From Selenomonas sp. (GTDB lineage Bacteria; Bacillota_C; Negativicutes; Selenomonadales; Selenomonadaceae), in contig JAGAYB010000113.1 of the NCBI GenBank assembly GCA_017940705.1, forward strand, positions 1 to 6,742: a stretch of DNA of 6,742 nt. The letters are read 5' to 3'. Shown piece by piece: positions 2,785 through 6,742 of this stretch (positions are counted from its first letter, which is position 1; the number at the start of each line of letters is the position of its first letter). Position numbers and translations under genes: made by a program. The notes under the pieces are model-generated. The model searched no databases. It saw only the letters and a program-made list of their open reading frames with translations, and was not told the origin of the DNA.

Positions 2785-4065
2785 TTGACTTCAACAACGA
2801 TAGCCATAGTTATCTTTGTGGCTGCTTATGCCTTGATTATTTCGGAAAAGGTACATCGCACCATCGTGGGCATCTTTGGTGCCATGCTGATGATTCTGTT
2901 CGGGATTATCAGTCAGGAAACGGCTATTCATCACATTGACTTTAATACATTGGGCCTTTTGATGGGCATGATGATTATTGTCAACATTACCAGTGAAACG
3001 GGGCTGTTTAACTTCCTTGCCATCTGGGCGGCCAAGAAGGTCAAGGCAAAGCCCGTGGCGCTGCTGGTGGCGCTGTCCACCATTACGGCTGTATGCTCGG
3101 CACTCCTCGATAACGTGACCACGGTGCTTTTGACCGTGCCTATTACGTTTAGCATTACTTCGCAGCTCAAGGTAGATGTAAAGCCGTATCTGATGGCACA
3201 GATTATTTCCTCCAATATCGGCGGTACGGCCACCCTTATCGGTGACCCGCCGAATATTATGATTGGCAGTGCCGTGGGCCTGAGCTTTATGGACTTCATT
3301 CAGAACATGACGCTGGTATCGGTGGTTATATTCATCGTAGTGCAGGGCGTTCTCGTTGCGCTCTATGGCAGCAAGCTCAAAACTACACCGGAACTGCAGG
3401 ACAAGGTTATGCGCCTTAATGCCAAGAGTCAGATTGCCGACAAGGCCTTGCTGAAAAAATGTCTGGCCGTAATCTTCTTTACGATTACGCTGTTCGCCAT
3501 GCACGGTGCTTTGGGGCTGGAAACGGCTACGGCGGCTCTCACGGGCGCAGGCCTGCTGCTCTTAATCACCTACACGCGCAATGAAACCATGATTGCCAAA
3601 GTCCTCTCCAAGGTGGAATGGCTGGCCATCTTCTTCTTTGCCGGTCTGTTCGTCCTCGTCGGCGCTTTGGTAGAGACCGGCGTTATCAAGGCCATGGCGG
3701 CAGAAGCCTTGGCTGTAACCAACGGCAATGTACCGATGACGGCGATGCTGATTCTTTGGATGAGTGCCATTGCCTCGGCCTTCATTGATAACATTCCCTT
3801 TGTAGCCACGCTGATTCCGCTGATTCAGGATATGGGGCAGATGGGGCTTTCCAACCTTGAGCCCATGTGGTGGAGTCTGGCGCTGGGCGCCTGCCTCGGC
3901 GGCAACGGTACGCTTATCGGTGCTTCGGCCAACGTGGTTGTGGCATCCCTGGCTGCCCAGCATGGCAAGCAGATTTCCTTCATTGGCTTTATGAAGGTAG
4001 CTTTCCCGGTGATGATTCTCACCATTATCATGTCCAGTATCTACATCTGGATTTGGCATCTCTAA
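2785..4065 (+). CDS. SLC13/ArsB/NhaD-superfamily ion permease
   Basis: An inner-membrane transporter of 426 residues with about ten hydrophobic segments in two related halves. Half one carries LLDNVTT (107-113) and then SNIGGTATLIGDPPNIM (143-159), the hallmark loop of the ArsB/P-protein branch of the ion transporter superfamily. Half two carries FIDNIPF (333-339) and LGGNGTLIGASANVV (371-385), the matching re-entrant loop. The two DN pairs (109-110, 335-336) are the expected pseudo-symmetric elements. The substrate is not determined: no arsR or arsC is next to it, so naming it arsB is unjustified, and sodium-coupled anion or dicarboxylate uptake, or proton/sodium antiport, are alternatives. 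The start is TTG at 2785 with AGAGGGG (2772-2778) six bases upstream. It lies 38 bases after glnS with no terminator between, so it is probably co-transcribed. Confidence 0.88.
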   Translation: MTSTTIAIVIFVAAYALIISEKVHRTIVGIFGAMLMILFGIISQETAIHHIDFNTLGLLMGMMIIVNITSETGLFNFLAIWAAKKVKAKPVALLVALSTITAVCSALLDNVTTVLLTVPITFSITSQLKVDVKPYLMAQIISSNIGGTATLIGDPPNIMIGSAVGLSFMDFIQNMTLVSVVIFIVVQGVLVALYGSKLKTTPELQDKVMRLNAKSQIADKALLKKCLAVIFFTITLFAMHGALGLETATAALTGAGLLLLITYTRNETMIAKVLSKVEWLAIFFFAGLFVLVGALVETGVIKAMAAEALAVTNGNVPMTAMLILWMSAIASAFIDNIPFVATLIPLIQDMGQMGLSNLEPMWWSLALGACLGGNGTLIGASANVVVASLAAQHGKQISFIGFMKVAFPVMILTIIMSSIYIWIWHL

Positions 4066-4157: not shown

Positions 4158-4334
4158 TTAAGGCTTTAAGGGCTTATAGGGATTAGGCCTGCCGGCTGCA
4201 GCGAGAGTATCCAGTTCATTCCAGGATAGCTCCTGTTTCTGGCTGCGCATCTCGTGGAGGTGGTCCTTGAGGCTGTCTTTTACTTTGCTGAAACGGGAGA
4301 AGTCCGTTTCCTGTAGTTGTTTTTCAATACGCAT
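4158..4334 (-). CDS. Small protein of unknown function, 58 aa
   Basis: Not recognised. The start ATG (4334-4332) has a perfect AGGAGG (minus strand, 4343-4348) eight bases upstream and an extended -10 promoter behind it, so the gene is well supported despite its size. The protein is highly charged, begins MRIEKQLQETDFSRF, is predicted largely helical (about residues 12-47) and ends in a Pro/Lys-rich tail (RPNPYKPLKP). It has no signal peptide, membrane segment or cysteine. The segment ELSWNELDTLAAAG (35-48) faintly recalls the end of a double-glycine or Nif11-type leader, but it has Ala-Ala-Ala-Gly instead of Gly-Gly. It is divergent from the adaptor gene and shares its promoter region, so a role in the peptide locus (regulator, immunity or accessory) is possible but only inferred from position. 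It could equally be an unrelated small cytoplasmic protein. Confidence 0.75.
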   Translation of the reverse strand: MRIEKQLQETDFSRFSKVKDSLKDHLHEMRSQKQELSWNELDTLAAAGRPNPYKPLKP

Positions 4335-4441: not shown

Positions 4442-5623
4442 ATGAAAACGTATTTTTACTTGGGTGTCGGCATTATTATTATGGTTATTGTGGGGCTGTT
4501 AGGCTACGGCGTGTACCTGAACCAGCGTGGGGAAAACGAAATCGAGCAGCGTATGGAAAACCTGCGCCTGCCCCTTAATGGTGCGGTGGTTCAGGAACGG
4601 GAAATCCAGCCCTATGTGGAGCTGGAACTGACGAATTTCTATTGCGATGATATGGCCGATGTAATCGCCAGGGAAAATGGGCGCATCACTCAGGTGTTTG
4701 TGGAAAAACATGGCATGGTGACGGCAGGCAAGCCCATCCTGCAGCTGGTGGACGAGGATATTCCTTTAAAAATCAAGCAGGCCGATAGCGATATAATGGA
4801 GGCTGAGGCTCAGCTACTGAAGGCGCGTAATTCCTATAACCGTTACAGTCAGCTCGTGGAATACCATGCTATTTCGCTGGAAAAATATGATGAGGCGGCA
4901 GCAGCCTACAAGGCTGCCCAGGCGCGAATGGATAATTTGACGGCCCAGCGGGAACAGCTGCTTATGCGCCAGTCCCGGCAGATGGTGCTGTCCTCCATTG
5001 ATGGGGAGGTATTGCGCCTTTACCAGAGTGAAGGTGCTTATGTGACAGCTGGTACGCCTGTGGCGTTGGTGGGGGATTTCAGCAAGCTCTATTTCACGTC
5101 TCCCGTGGTGGACGAGCAGGCTAAGCGCATGGTAATCGGCCAGCCTGTCAGTCTGACCATTGACGCTGGTACGTCTGTACTGGGCGGCGAGGCCCTGCCC
5201 AAACCTTATGGTGCGAATTATTCCGTGGGCAATATGGGTGAGGACCAGATTTTTTCGGCCATGGTGATAAAAATAACGCCGGACCTGGCTGAACCGGCAA
5301 CGGTACGGCAGGTAATCTGGCAGGTGGACAACCGCGTGGGGCTATTGGAACCGGGCACCTATCGGAAGGTACGGCTACATGCCAATGCGGCACGCAAGTG
5401 CCTGGCGGTGCCGGTGGCGGCCTTTACTGATGAATACCATGACCGGGTGGCAGTCGTGGAATCCGATGGATGTCTGGGATTCCGTGATGTGAAAACAGGC
5501 ATAACCAACGGTACATATATTGAAATCATTTCCGGGCTGCAGGCGGGGGATATCGTCATCACCTCCGATACTGAAGGAGTGACAGCCGGCACGGAAGTGG
5601 AACTCACGCTGGAAGAAAACTAA
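4442..5623 (+). CDS. Periplasmic adaptor (HlyD/RND membrane fusion protein family), probable exporter subunit
   Basis: A 393-residue adaptor linking an inner-membrane pump to an outer-membrane channel. Domains in order: one membrane segment (about 5-26, no lipobox cysteine, so anchored by the helix); first lipoyl half with GRITQVFVEKHGMVTAGKPI (80-99); a short alpha-hairpin (about 106-180, with YHAISLEKYDEAAAAYKAAQ at 141-160); second lipoyl half (about 184-212, EGAYVTAGTPVALVGD); a beta-barrel (about 213-318); and a membrane-proximal domain ending in TYIEIISGLQAGDIVITS (358-375). This last domain is typical of RND/MacA-like adaptors rather than classical type 1 HlyD. The length is normal for the family. 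The start ATG has GGAGA at 4429-4433. No pump or outer-membrane partner gene lies in the window. Downstream are double-glycine peptides on the same strand, so it probably serves their export, although a small-molecule efflux role is the standard alternative. Confidence 0.9.
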   Translation: MKTYFYLGVGIIIMVIVGLLGYGVYLNQRGENEIEQRMENLRLPLNGAVVQEREIQPYVELELTNFYCDDMADVIARENGRITQVFVEKHGMVTAGKPILQLVDEDIPLKIKQADSDIMEAEAQLLKARNSYNRYSQLVEYHAISLEKYDEAAAAYKAAQARMDNLTAQREQLLMRQSRQMVLSSIDGEVLRLYQSEGAYVTAGTPVALVGDFSKLYFTSPVVDEQAKRMVIGQPVSLTIDAGTSVLGGEALPKPYGANYSVGNMGEDQIFSAMVIKITPDLAEPATVRQVIWQVDNRVGLLEPGTYRKVRLHANAARKCLAVPVAAFTDEYHDRVAVVESDGCLGFRDVKTGITNGTYIEIISGLQAGDIVITSDTEGVTAGTEVELTLEEN

Positions 5624-5635
5624 TTTTTGCAGCCC

Positions 5636-5675
5636 TTGTAATAGTTTGCGAAATCAAGCGTATGTATAGGCAAAT
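5636..5675 (+). promoter_or_regulatory. Duplicated upstream element, copy 1 (before peptide 1)
   Basis: This stretch aligns without gaps to 6005-6044, with 28 of 40 positions identical. Two blocks stand out: TGTAATAG (5637-5644) and TCAA-CGTAT-TATA-GC (5654-5671). They are spaced exactly 22 bases start to start in both copies. The second block contains TATGTATA, a possible -10 region, and the first could be an activator or -35-like box, but no consensus -35 fits at 17 bases. It lies about 45 bases before the start of peptide 1. Promoter function is inferred from conservation and position. Confidence 0.5.
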
Positions 5676-5720
5676 AAAAAATATAGAATACAAACAACAT
5701 AAAGAAAGGTGGGGATTAAA

Positions 5721-5999
5721 ATGACGGGTAAAGATAAAAAACTCGAACTGCAGGAAAGAGATTTAGCGCATATTTCTGGCGGCGAGGAGTTAGAAACAAT
5801 TCCTATCGAGGATATTAGTGATCAGCTTAACGTCCAAATTGGAACTATGACAGCGTTCAGCTCAGGGCCGGCGGAAGGACCGGCGAATGAACCTGGGCCG
5901 AGCTATTATCAGGACAACAGCAACAACAGTGGCGCCCAGCAAAATACCCAGAATGGTGACTGCGAGAATACGGGCGGTATGAACGTCAAAAAAAAATAA
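5721..5999 (+). CDS. Double-glycine leader peptide 1 (92 aa), putative secreted bacteriocin-like precursor
   Basis: The leader is residues 1-21, MTGKDKKLEL to ISGG, with Leu10, Leu15 and Ile18 at -12, -7 and -4 before Gly20-Gly21. This is the pattern cut by C39-peptidase ABC exporters. The predicted core is 71 residues: an acidic stretch (22-44), a Pro/Gly-rich linker (about 48-61, with GPANEPGP), then the conserved tail NSNNSGAQQNTQNGD (66-80) ending in Lys-Lys-Lys. Cys81 is the only cysteine among the four peptides of the array, so no disulfide within this chain is possible. The ATG at 5721 is preferred over the GTG at 5709, because GGTGGGG (5708-5714) then serves as ribosome binding site and peptide 4 starts identically (GGGGATTAAAATGAC, MTGKD). 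The function is unknown. The family resemblance is to the leader only. Confidence 0.85.
   Translation: MTGKDKKLELQERDLAHISGGEELETIPIEDISDQLNVQIGTMTAFSSGPAEGPANEPGPSYYQDNSNNSGAQQNTQNGDCENTGGMNVKKK
5916..5978 (+). repeat. Conserved Asn/Gln tail module, copy 1 (peptide 1)
   Basis: This 63-base coding repeat covers residues 66-86 of peptide 1. Against copy 2, 19 of 21 residues and 51 of 63 bases agree. Seven of the nine differing codons are synonymous, so the module has been kept at the protein level. The residues that differ are Asp80 and Cys81 (Asn and Ile in copy 2). Confidence 0.9.
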
Positions 6000-6004
6000 A
6001 AACT

Positions 6005-6044
6005 ATGTAATAGGCTATATACTCAATCGTATATATAAGCAAAA
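6005..6044 (+). promoter_or_regulatory. Duplicated upstream element, copy 2 (before peptide 2)
   Basis: Ungapped match to 5636-5675, with TGTAATAG at 6006-6013 and TCAATCGTATATATAAGC at 6023-6040. It ends about 35 bases before the start of peptide 2. Here the second block offers TATATA/TATAAG as -10-like sequence. Peptides 3 and 4 have only about 20 bases in front of them and no copy, which suggests that transcription can begin before peptides 1 and 2 and runs through 3 and 4. Confidence 0.5.
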
Positions 6045-6079
6045 TCAAGAAAGATTAAAAAAAGAAAGGGGTTTTAAAA

Positions 6080-6346
6080 ATGAAGGACAACAAGCAGGAA
6101 CTCAGCACTGAGAAGATGGAAAAGGTCTCCGGCGGCGGTTGGGAGCAGGTAATTCCGCTGGCAACTGAGGTGGTAGGCAAGCTGATGAATTCCGGTGGCA
6201 AAGATGATTCCGGCAGTGGACAGTCAGCTCCGGCCAATACTACCCCCACAAATCAGCAGAATAACTCCAATAACAGCGGTGCCCAGCAGAATACCCAGAA
6301 CGGTAACATTGAGAATACAGGCGGTTTGGTAGTTAATCCCAAGTAA
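6080..6346 (+). CDS. Double-glycine leader peptide 2 (88 aa), putative secreted bacteriocin-like precursor
   Basis: The leader is residues 1-19, MKDNKQELSTEKMEKVSGG, with Leu8, Met13 and Val16 at -12, -7 and -4. A third Gly follows, so the cut may fall after Gly19 or, less likely, Gly20. The core (69 residues) starts with WEQVIPLATEVVGKLM (21-36), in which Trp21, Val24, Ile25, Ala28, Val31, Val32, Leu35 and Met36 fall on one face: an amphipathic, potentially membrane-active helix. A Gly/Ser/Pro/Thr linker (37-57) follows, then the conserved tail (58-82) and a short hydrophobic end (LVVNPK). Ribosome binding site AAAGGGG is at 6065-6071, eight bases from the ATG. The leader is of a different type from peptide 1 and resembles peptide 3. 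There is no cysteine. Bacteriocin, signal and assembling surface peptide are all possible. Confidence 0.87.
   Translation: MKDNKQELSTEKMEKVSGGGWEQVIPLATEVVGKLMNSGGKDDSGSGQSAPANTTPTNQQNNSNNSGAQQNTQNGNIENTGGLVVNPK
6263..6325 (+). repeat. Conserved Asn/Gln tail module, copy 2 (peptide 2)
   Basis: Residues 62-82 of peptide 2 (NSNNSGAQQNTQNGN, then IENTGG). The similarity extends upstream into NQQN, which is shared with peptide 3 but not with peptide 1. It is the most typical of the three copies, sharing 19 of 21 residues with copy 1 and 15 of 21 with copy 3. Confidence 0.9.
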
Positions 6347-6367
6347 GCGAAAGGACAGGGACAGGCC

Positions 6368-6613
6368 ATGAAGGAAGAAAAACAGGAACTGGAAATGGAA
6401 AACCTGTCAAAAGTGGCAGGCGGGGCAGAAAACAACCAGCAGAATAATTCGGATAACAGTGGTGCTCAGCAGAACACGCAACATGGTGATATTAATAATA
6501 CAAGCCATATCTCGCAGGTAAATGAGGTGTCCAATAACGCTGCACCGGTAGATATCGGCTCACCGGTTGACATCAATAATGGTGGGAACAACAGCGTCTA
6601 CAACATCAATTGA
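6368..6613 (+). CDS. Double-glycine leader peptide 3 (81 aa), lacking the variable segment
   Basis: The leader is residues 1-19, MKEEKQELEMENLSKVAGG, with Leu8, Leu13 and Val16 at -12, -7 and -4. It is identical to the peptide 2 leader at 11 of 19 positions. The Asn/Gln module (ENNQQNNSDNSGAQQNTQHGD, 21-41) follows the GG almost at once, so the helix and linker of peptide 2 are missing. Instead there is a unique C-terminal part (46-81) with a PVDI-GS-PVDI internal repeat (60-69) and an Asn-rich end (NNGGNNSVYNIN). It has no Cys and is almost without positive charge after cleavage. The gene starts 21 bases after the peptide 2 stop. The ribosome binding site is weak (AGGGACAGG at 6357-6365), so translation may depend on coupling to peptide 2. 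It may be an assembly partner rather than an active toxin, by inference. Confidence 0.83.
   Translation: MKEEKQELEMENLSKVAGGAENNQQNNSDNSGAQQNTQHGDINNTSHISQVNEVSNNAAPVDIGSPVDINNGGNNSVYNIN
6446..6508 (+). repeat. Conserved Asn/Gln tail module, copy 3 (peptide 3)
   Basis: Residues 27-47 of peptide 3 (NSDNSGAQQNTQHGD, then INNTSH). It agrees with copy 2 at 15 of 21 residues, with seven further codons differing only synonymously. The GG that ends copies 1 and 2 is replaced by Ser-His, and the protein continues for 34 more residues. Confidence 0.87.
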
Positions 6614-6633
6614 TATAGTGAGGGGGGATTAAA

Positions 6634-6742
6634 ATGACCGGTAAAGATGAGAGAAACGAACTCAAGGCTAAAGATTTAGCGCAGGTTTCTGGCGGCAATT
6701 GGTTTAAAGACGTAGTTAAATATGCCACAACAGGTGTACCCG
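6634..6742 (+). CDS. Double-glycine leader peptide 4, N-terminal part (partial)
   Basis: Cut by the right edge after 36 codons. The leader is residues 1-21, MTGKDERNEL to VSGG, with Leu10, Leu15 and Val18 at -12, -7 and -4. It shares 13 of 21 residues with the peptide 1 leader and 50 of 63 bases in the same stretch, plus an identical GGGGATTAAA before the ATG, so the two are duplicates. The core begins NWFKDVVKYATTGVP (22-36), where Trp23, Phe24, Val27, Val28 and Ala31 give an amphipathic pattern like the start of the peptide 2 core. Whether it carries the Asn/Gln tail cannot be seen. Ribosome binding site AGGGGGG is at 6621-6627. It starts 20 bases after the peptide 3 stop, so the array continues to the right. 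Confidence 0.85.
   Translation, partial: MTGKDERNELKAKDLAQVSGGNWFKDVVKYATTGVP

What the first reader, a model, noticed from the sequence alone, without database searches (positions are those of the whole stretch)
5721..6742. Tandem array of double-glycine peptides joined to a conserved Asn/Gln-rich tail
Four consecutive small genes carry textbook GG leaders (-12/-7/-4 hydrophobic, then GG). The three complete ones share a tail with NS-NSGAQQNTQ-G---NT. GG-leader bacteriocins usually have Gly-rich helical or Cys-containing cores. A strongly polar Asn/Gln module kept across otherwise unrelated cores is unusual, and I cannot place it in a named family. It could be a docking signal for export, a receptor-binding or self-assembly (amyloid-like) element, or an outer-membrane retention tag.
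Basis: partly seen in the sequence, partly recalled or inferred. Interest (0 to 1): 0.85.

Follow-up and report, generated by a model that had tools for sequence, protein, structure and literature searches.

The report
Exported peptide set sharing a tail
A Selenomonas-type bacterium carries four neighbouring genes for small, probably exported peptides with different bodies and one shared, tightly conserved tail; relatives pair such peptides with a dedicated exporter, an alternative sigma factor and an outer-membrane autotransporter, which suggests a surface-acting peptide system that matched no family in the libraries searched.

Summary
In detail: four small genes (5721-6742) have canonical GG leaders. 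The three complete ones share QxNSxNSGAQQNTQxG, and the full-length homologue of the cut fourth has a near-identical tail. The tail is under protein-level purifying selection; the cores change freely. No Pfam or NCBIfam model covers it. A syntenic locus (L001, Selenomonas sp. AE3005) shows what the window cuts off: a complete NHLM (NHLP-type) two-ABC exporter with C39 peptidase, an ECF sigma factor, a fifth GG mini-peptide and a type Va autotransporter. Of 189 family genomes, seven have such peptide sets; all seven have the mini-peptide, and in 8 of 9 mini-peptide genomes the autotransporter lies directly downstream. A bipartite promoter (TGTAAT-N16-CGTATnTAT) precedes p1 and p2, recurs before GG-peptide genes elsewhere, and tracks the sigma factor (Fisher p = 3e-16). 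Export docking is disfavoured: tail-less GG peptides share leader type and promoter. Best reading: an NHLM-exported, sigma-controlled multi-peptide set acting at the cell surface, its tail being the common module that joins the peptides to each other or to the autotransporter. Main rival: microcin-like peptides whose tail is an uptake domain; no immunity gene was recognised. Function is untested.

The parts
4442..5623 (+). HlyD/RND-type periplasmic adaptor (393 aa), the gene next to the array
   Evidence: TIGR01730 166.9 bits (cut-off 94.9), HlyD_D23 and HlyD_3; a homologue in 50 of 61 stretches examined
5637..5674 (+). ECF-type promoter element P1: TGTAAT-N16-CGTATGTAT, upstream of p1
   Evidence: 0 mismatches; none in 200 shuffles; conserved in L001 and before peptide genes of other genomes
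5721..5999 (+). peptide p1 (92 aa): GG leader 1-21, core EELETIPIEDISDQ..., shared tail, end
5910..5960 (+). tail motif of p1, QDNSNNSGAQQNTQNGD
6006..6043 (+). ECF-type promoter element P2: TGTAAT-N16-CGTATATAT, upstream of p2-p3-p4
6080..6346 (+). peptide p2 (88 aa): GG leader 1-19, amphipathic core GWEQVIPLATEVVGKL, G/S/T/P linker, shared tail
6257..6307 (+). tail motif of p2, QNNSNNSGAQQNTQNGN
6368..6613 (+). peptide p3 (81 aa): GG leader, tail almost directly after the cleavage site, then a second module
6440..6490 (+). tail motif of p3, QNNSDNSGAQQNTQHGD
6515..6577 (+). second module of p3 (QVNEVSNNAAPVDIGSPVDIN); the part of p3 after the tail is similar in L109 p3 (0 of 1000 shuffles) and resembles, by eye, the mini-peptide before the autotransporter
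6634..6742 (+). peptide p4, first 36 aa (GG leader and start of the core NWFKDVVKYATTGVP); full length in P0009 and L001 with the tail

Best explanation
The array encodes substrates of an NHLM-type (C39 peptidase, two-ABC, HlyD) exporter. An ECF sigma factor of the same operon switches them on. The leader is cut at GG and the mature peptides reach the outside of this outer-membrane-bearing Firmicute. There they act together as a multi-peptide set at the cell surface. The variable cores (membrane-active-looking helices in p2 and p4) are the working parts. The conserved Asn/Gln tail is the shared interaction module that joins the peptides to each other and/or to the autotransporter passenger encoded in the same locus with its GG mini-peptide. 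Shown by sequence: leaders, tail conservation, linked exporter in relatives, promoter-sigma association, co-inheritance with mini-peptide plus autotransporter. Inferred: cleavage, export, surface location, joint assembly, the role of the tail.
For: Exporter: in L001 the three genes after p4 pass the NCBIfam cut-offs for NHLM HlyD (226.5/156.2 bits), NHLM ABC1-C39 (967.3/853.3) and NHLM ABC2 (754.1/709.4). GG peptides with Asn/Gln-rich tails lie within about 6 kb of an NHLM ABC2 gene in G001, G005, G039, G117, G166 and G083; the G091 contig is too short to tell. Promoter: TGTAAY-N16-CGTATnTAT in 27 of 189 genomes, 87 sites against 4 for the reversed pattern. 20 of 26 genomes with the operon's sigma factor have it, against 7 of 163 without (p = 3e-16); leaving out the six genomes whose loci shaped the pattern, 15 of 21 against 6 of 162 (p = 7e-13). 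16 of 26 sites read downstream are followed within 130 nt by a GG-leader ORF, against 16 of 3000 and 99 of 3000 random positions. Partner: the mini-peptide (GG leader, QVEIxNxVKxNxxPVxIGxTVVI) at E<1e-10 in 9 of 189 genomes; in 8 of 9 the autotransporter lies directly downstream. Five of the nine built the profile; of the four new ones three have the autotransporter next to it. The 7 peptide-set genomes are all among the 9 (p = 2e-11; without the five profile genomes, 3 of 4 against 0 of 180, p = 4e-6). Tail versus core, window against L001: cores 10 nonsynonymous to 1 synonymous change, tail motif 0 to 3, adaptor 5 to 21. Tails are locus-matched: similarity within/between genomes 0.364/0.176 for tails, 0.254/0.186 for the middle, 0.546/0.439 for leaders (33 peptides, 8 genomes). 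p2, p3 and p4 have orthologues outside the genus in L109 (0, 0 and 1 of 1000 shuffles; for p3 the part after the tail).
Against: No physical evidence of binding, export or assembly. An eighth genome, G121, has one Asn/Gln-rich GG peptide beside an NHLM ABC2 gene but no mini-peptide at E<1e-10 (its contig is 3.3 kb). The mini-peptide genomes G105 and G113 gave no clear tail-bearing set (contigs of 4.0 and 3.2 kb). p1 has no demonstrable orthologue in L109 (577 of 1000 shuffles; its core is more like L109 p2, 8 of 1000). AlphaFold2 gave p4 no confident structure (mean pLDDT 48.5). The tail-only profile recovers G001, G039, G117 and G091 but not G005, G166 or G083, so homology of the tails in those three is not shown. 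Middles and leaders, too, are more alike within than between genomes (0 of 2000 label shuffles each), and near-duplicate genes in G039 and G166 add to this. Six of 26 sigma genomes have no exact promoter site, two of them (G083, G121) with such peptides. The adaptor, HlyD and sigma genes examined have no such element upstream. The part of the peptides after the tail motif changes about as freely as the cores (8 to 2). Fisher tests ignore shared descent, and co-inheritance of neighbours can reflect shared transfer. The exporter is read from a syntenic relative, not from the window.
Confidence: 0.4

Rival explanations
1. A multi-component class II microcin-like set: p2 and p4 cores (and the long-leader peptides of G005 and G091) are membrane-active toxins, and the shared C-terminal tail is a receptor-binding uptake domain that delivers different toxins through one receptor of competing outer-membrane-bearing bacteria.
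For: Class II microcins have GG leaders, and their C-terminus determines uptake; microcins V and L resemble each other only in the C-terminal 32 residues and share the receptor Cir (PMC10233263, passages). p2 and p4 cores are amphipathic (moment 0.45 and 0.39 at 100 degrees, no control run). Cores accumulate amino-acid changes (10:1) while the tail motif is frozen.
Against: [quoted passage not shown] In L001 no ORF of 30 aa or more lies free between adaptor and HlyD apart from p1-p4; in L109 one 44-aa GTG frame (10715-10849) does, without a hydrophobic stretch by eye. p1 has no amphipathic core (0.15) and p3 has virtually no core. Tails match within a locus and differ between genomes, which fits a partner in the producer better than a receptor in prey. 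The 10:1 ratio does not differ from neutrality (p = 0.25).
Confidence: 0.3
2. The tail is a second recognition element for the exporter or for a tailoring enzyme (a follower peptide).
For: The tail is as constant as a recognition element would be, and exporter genes are linked.
Against: Tail-less GG peptides (the mini-peptide; dispersed peptides in L214, L216-L220, L223-L226, L229-L232) carry the same leader type, and the dispersed ones the same promoter; that they use the same exporter is not shown, and G001 has a second NHLM locus. Among the L001 proteins scanned, from HlyD to autotransporter, and the window's adaptor, none matches a tailoring enzyme. The tail lies almost right after the cleavage site in p3 and 40 or more residues later in p1, p2 and p4, so its distance from the leader is not fixed.
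Confidence: 0.1
3. The peptides are intercellular signals or simple matrix/adhesion filler, and the tail is a compositional feature (solubility or spacing) without a binding partner.
For: The tail is polar, low in hydrophobicity (mean -0.47) and in p4 follows flexible G/S/T/P linkers that vary in length between homologues.
Against: Residue identity, not only composition, is conserved with synonymous sites near saturation; nine tail positions (N, S, G, Q) are invariant in the 17 sequences of A2. Four co-encoded versions are unusual for a signal.
Confidence: 0.1

Closest known systems
NHLP/Nif11 precursor and NHLM export systems (TIGR03793/03798 precursors; TIGR03794/03796/03797 exporter; PMC2887384)
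   Same: The exporter: HlyD, C39-ABC and second ABC, all above curated cut-offs in L001; substrates end their leader in GG.
   Different: The window peptides have short class-II-type leaders with no NHLP or Nif11 match at E<=1; no tailoring enzyme among the proteins scanned; extra RND-type adaptor, ECF sigma factor, mini-peptide and autotransporter. A Nif11-like leader was seen in a relative (L046 peptide, E 4e-4, below cut-off).
Class II microcins, e.g. MccV and MccL (PMC10233263)
   Same: GG leader, variable N-terminal part joined to a conserved C-terminal part; C39-type exporter (the latter recalled for microcins).
   Different: No immunity gene recognised, four different cores in one operon, Asn/Gln tail rather than a Ser/Gly siderophore or Cir-type tail, NHLM two-ABC exporter, linked autotransporter.
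Cdz contact-dependent bacteriocin of Caulobacter crescentus (PMC5380434)
   Same: Small peptides secreted by a type I system through an outer membrane; surface retention is shown there, only proposed here.
   Different: Cdz relies on hydrophobic glycine zippers and has the CdzI immunity protein; here the conserved module is polar Asn/Gln and no immunity gene was recognised.
FapF/NapF-type C39-linked amyloid or peptide secretion (PMC5557850, listing only; PMC11798529, passages)
   Same: C39-linked export of GG peptides together with a dedicated outer-membrane beta-barrel.
   Different: The partner here is a type Va autotransporter with a long passenger; structural matches to FapF cover the barrel only and rank below the best autotransporters.

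Membership tests
NHLM/NHLP export system | TransFuse, TransCleave and TransABC genes (TIGR03794, TIGR03796, TIGR03797) | tested here: met
   All three above cut-off in the syntenic locus L001; the window itself ends before them
NHLM/NHLP export system | precursor with nitrile-hydratase-like or Nif11-like leader | tested here: not met
   No such match for p1-p4; among the 32 members of A3 one weak NHLP match, E 0.056; the L046 150-aa peptide matches Nif11 below cut-off
Class II GG-leader peptides (bacteriocin/microcin type) | short leader with hydrophobic -12/-7/-4 and GG | tested here: met
   Sequence; sub-threshold leader matches to ComC, Bacteriocin_IIc, TIGR01847
Class II microcin | adjacent immunity gene | tested here: not met
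   No free ORF of 30 aa or more in L001; one 44-aa GTG frame in L109, not immunity-like by eye; an immunity gene elsewhere is not excluded
Class II microcin | antibacterial activity | not testable with these tools
   needs the bench
Cdz-type contact-dependent bacteriocin | extended hydrophobic glycine zipper | not tested
   no dedicated test run; G-rich stretches of p4 look linker-like by eye
Curli or other functional amyloid | curlin repeat model (Pfam) | tested here: not met
   32 members of A3 scanned at E<=1, no curlin match
Curli or other functional amyloid | cross-beta fibre formation | not testable with these tools
   needs ThT, electron microscopy or diffraction
Type Va autotransporter (the linked partner) | C-terminal barrel of the autotransporter fold | tested here: met

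The most novel reading that the evidence does not exclude
A two-route surface assembly system: peptides exported by a type I NHLM machine dock through a locus-specific Asn/Gln tail onto, or co-polymerise with, the passenger of a type Va autotransporter. One ECF sigma factor would co-switch them with a dispersed arsenal of GG peptides, so the tail would be a standard plug that lets interchangeable cores be displayed on the outer membrane of a diderm Firmicute.
Probability: 0.25. Interest if true: 0.82.

Novelty: new variant of a known kind. Interest (0 to 1): 0.6.

Why it matters
NHLM exporters are common in this family (106 of 189 genomes over the ABC2 cut-off), yet no description of their substrates or regulation there turned up in the papers searched. 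This locus supplies a substrate family with a module that can be tested alone, a promoter signature that finds further GG-peptide genes, and a candidate sigma factor and surface partner. If the tail joins peptides to an autotransporter, it would be a new way to display exported peptides on an outer membrane and a modular tag of practical use.

Tried and rejected
Window's own genome: none held, so exporter, sigma factor and autotransporter are read from the syntenic L001 and other relatives. Rfam: no match in the window. Sigma-70 promoters and terminators in 5500-6742: no more than chance. Curlin-like reading of Q-x-G-x-x-N in some tails: suggested by eye, no Pfam support, not claimed. N-x-S/T glycosylation sequons in the tail: not constant between loci by eye, dropped. 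Passenger fold: Foldseek and VIA-align rows do not test it on its own (VIA-align rows shown begin at about residue 350), so no statement on its fold is made. FapF-like secretion: matches are barrel-only. First GG-leader script used a wrong spacing, replaced. One codon script stopped with an error for picking the wrong record (redone); another stopped half-way (its substitution counts stand, the rest redone in 96).

Selections behind counts. The seven 'peptide-set' genomes were chosen by reading stretches around hits: the full-length profile gave 16 of 189 genomes at E<=0.05, six of these at E<1e-4 (G001, G039, G091, G166, G083, G005), G117 at 0.026; most of the other nine are leader-only or partial matches. 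In one search, 33 peptides were kept and 13 dropped (tail Asn+Gln fraction under 0.2 or post-GG part under 35 aa; the drops include mini-peptides, tail-less GG peptides of G166 and G121, and one peptide each of G166 and G117 that has a tail-like end just under the threshold). In one search, 36 upstream stretches were read and 12 hold TGTAAY-N16-CGTA. In one search the 26 sites are those in 20 fetched stretches, out of 87 sites in all (my notebook says 86 by miscount); 10 of 26 had no GG ORF, two of them preceding LysM proteins. Of the 12 tail-only matches, several are profile members or their near-identical L001 orthologues. The broad tail search scored only the 7986 candidates sharing most words; 40 of 41 listed proteins had E<0.01. 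The mini-peptide search of the class found 9 of 380 genomes, all in the family.

Papers: PMC2887384 (passages and section 6), PMC4289311, PMC5380434, PMC10233263, PMC11798529 (passages); PMC5007114 (start of abstract); all others search listings only. The library lacks most subscription papers.

Full report
WHAT IS IN THE WINDOW. The window reads an HD-domain protein (252-1070), a gln-tRNA synthetase-like gene (1070-2746; name mine, from its sequence), a CitMHS transporter (2785-4065), an HlyD/RND-type adaptor (4442-5623) and then four small ORFs p1-p4 on the + strand. Each small ORF begins with a double-glycine leader whose -12, -7 and -4 positions are hydrophobic. p1-p3 share QxNSxNSGAQQNTQxG. 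The window's cut p4 is completed by P0009, a 112-aa protein with the same first 36 residues and a near-identical tail. All four members therefore carry it.

NOT CHANCE AND NOT A RECENT COPY. The three cores share an exact block of 9 residues against at most 4 in 2000 shuffles. Over 17 tail codons the paralogues have pS 0.46-1.21 and pN 0.05-0.14: synonymous sites are near saturation, so the amino-acid sequence is what is kept. Between the window and its p1-p3 orthologues in L001, cores show 10 nonsynonymous to 1 synonymous change, the tail motif 0 to 3, leaders 1 to 1, the part after the motif 8 to 2, and the adaptor 5 to 21. Core against adaptor differs at p = 8e-5, but the core ratio does not differ from neutrality (p = 0.25), so positive selection is not claimed. 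Among homologues, cores of p1, p2 and p4 are 0.15-0.22 identical to each other while the first 12 tail residues are 0.86-0.87 identical (33 proteins in three groups).

NO NAMED FAMILY. Pfam and NCBIfam give sub-threshold leader matches and scattered weak matches for the window peptides and for the 32 members of A3. Two searches of 5.8 billion proteins found 11 proteins (E<=1) and 41 proteins (E<=10); apart from a few that have lost the tail these are small GG peptides with it. One carried an organism name, Selenomonas sp. (P0012). A tail-only profile in 189 genomes of the family gave 12 matches at E<1e-4, all inside GG-peptide frames of G001, G039, G117 and G091 (several of them in or close to the profile), and six weak partial ones.

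WHAT THE WINDOW CUTS OFF. The one locus returned by the genome-collection scan, L001 (Selenomonas sp. AE3005), is syntenic: adaptor, p1-p4, then an HlyD protein, a C39-ABC exporter, a second ABC protein, a sigma factor, a fifth GG peptide of 52 aa and a 684-aa outer-membrane protein. The three exporter proteins pass the NHLM cut-offs. This is the export system that PMC2887384 (section 6 read) tied to NHLP/Nif11 precursors. It is common in the family: 106 of 189 genomes over the ABC2 cut-off. A homologue of the adaptor lies in 50 of 61 stretches examined, some of the rest being cut short or without an NHLM exporter.

THE PEPTIDE SETS IN RELATIVES. Sets of GG peptides with Asn/Gln-rich tails were found in G001, G005, G039, G091, G117, G166 and G083, and a single such peptide in G121. 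Each locus has its own tail wording shared by its peptides. Tail similarity is 0.364 within and 0.176 between genomes, a larger contrast than for leaders (0.546/0.439) or middles (0.254/0.186), though all three exceed 2000 label shuffles (33 peptides of 8 genomes, 13 dropped). Homology of the tails of G005, G166 and G083 to the window's tail is not shown by the tail-only profile. Outside the genus, L109 keeps orthologues of p2, p3 and p4 but not of p1. P0005-P0008 join a p2-type leader to a p1 core, so leader and core behave as modules.

A SHARED PROMOTER. The same 38-base element precedes p1 and p2 in window and L001. TGTAAY-N16-CGTA lies in 12 of 36 upstream stretches read: before window and L001 p1 and p2, before the first peptide genes of L046, L109, L110, L074 (two), L112 and L111, and before the L109 mini-peptide; not before the adaptor, HlyD or sigma genes read. 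The exact pattern TGTAAY-N16-CGTATnTAT gives 87 sites in 27 of 189 genomes, against 4 sites for the reversed pattern. 20 of 26 genomes with the operon's sigma factor have it, against 7 of 163 without; 19 of 20 when the sigma factor is at least 70% identical; 15 of 21 against 6 of 162 without the six genomes that shaped the pattern. Of 26 sites read downstream, 16 are followed within 130 nt by a GG-leader ORF (controls 16 and 99 of 3000). The likely meaning is that the ECF sigma factor of the NHLM operon drives a dispersed regulon of GG peptides, this array among them.

HOW IT MOST LIKELY WORKS. Shown by sequence: leader type, exporter in relatives, promoter association, co-inheritance. Inferred: the sigma factor turns on the array; the C39 domain cuts at GG; peptides leave the cell; the tail, probably not needed for export because tail-less peptides share leader type and promoter, is the common contact surface. 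Locus-matched tails and the constant presence of the mini-peptide in the seven sets, with the autotransporter beside it, point to a partner in the producer. Hence a surface-acting multi-peptide set is preferred (0.40). The microcin reading is next (0.30): microcins V and L share only a C-terminal uptake part (PMC10233263, passages), but no immunity gene was recognised and p1 and p3 are poor toxins by anatomy.

LIMITS. Nothing here shows expression, cleavage, export, binding, killing or fibres. AlphaFold2 sees p4 as unstructured. The window's own exporter was not seen. Statistical tests across genomes ignore shared descent.

Noticed in passing
window 5637-5674 and 6006-6043; L214-L232: ECF-type promoter TGTAAT-N16-CGTATnTAT marks a dispersed GG-peptide regulon in this family and tracks the NHLM-operon sigma factor; it can be used to find unannotated GG peptides.
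   Followed up: yes
L213:146-442 and L228:151-447: The same promoter element lies 74 and 95 nt before a 99-aa LysM protein in two genomes, a possible non-peptide member of the regulon.
   Followed up: partly
L122:14711-15307: An ORF with a GG leader near an NHLM exporter carries a Hint (intein/Hedgehog-type) domain above the Pfam cut-off: a GG precursor that may process itself.
   Followed up: partly
P0005-P0008 against window p1 and p2: A p1 core joined to a p2-type leader: leader and core are exchanged as modules.
   Followed up: no
L047, L058, L078: Close relatives of the same exporter (ABC1 85-88% identical) have no tail-bearing peptide and no autotransporter of this clade in the stretch read, so the substrate module comes and goes while the exporter stays.
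   Followed up: partly
L109 and L110 (G039:C16): A second p2+p3 pair with its own copy of the promoter lies about 39 kb from the main locus on the same contig.
   Followed up: no
window 4158-4334 minus strand; L001 8080-8256: A conserved 58-aa ORF on the opposite strand before the adaptor, no Pfam match at E<=0.01.
   Followed up: no
L055:14759-17179 and L115:8954-12856: Runs of six and nine GG-leader ORFs without the Asn/Gln tail; the one tested (L055 16841-17179) has no Pfam match.
   Followed up: no
L124:3492-3776: In G105 the mini-peptide has a long leader ending GS instead of GG.
   Followed up: no
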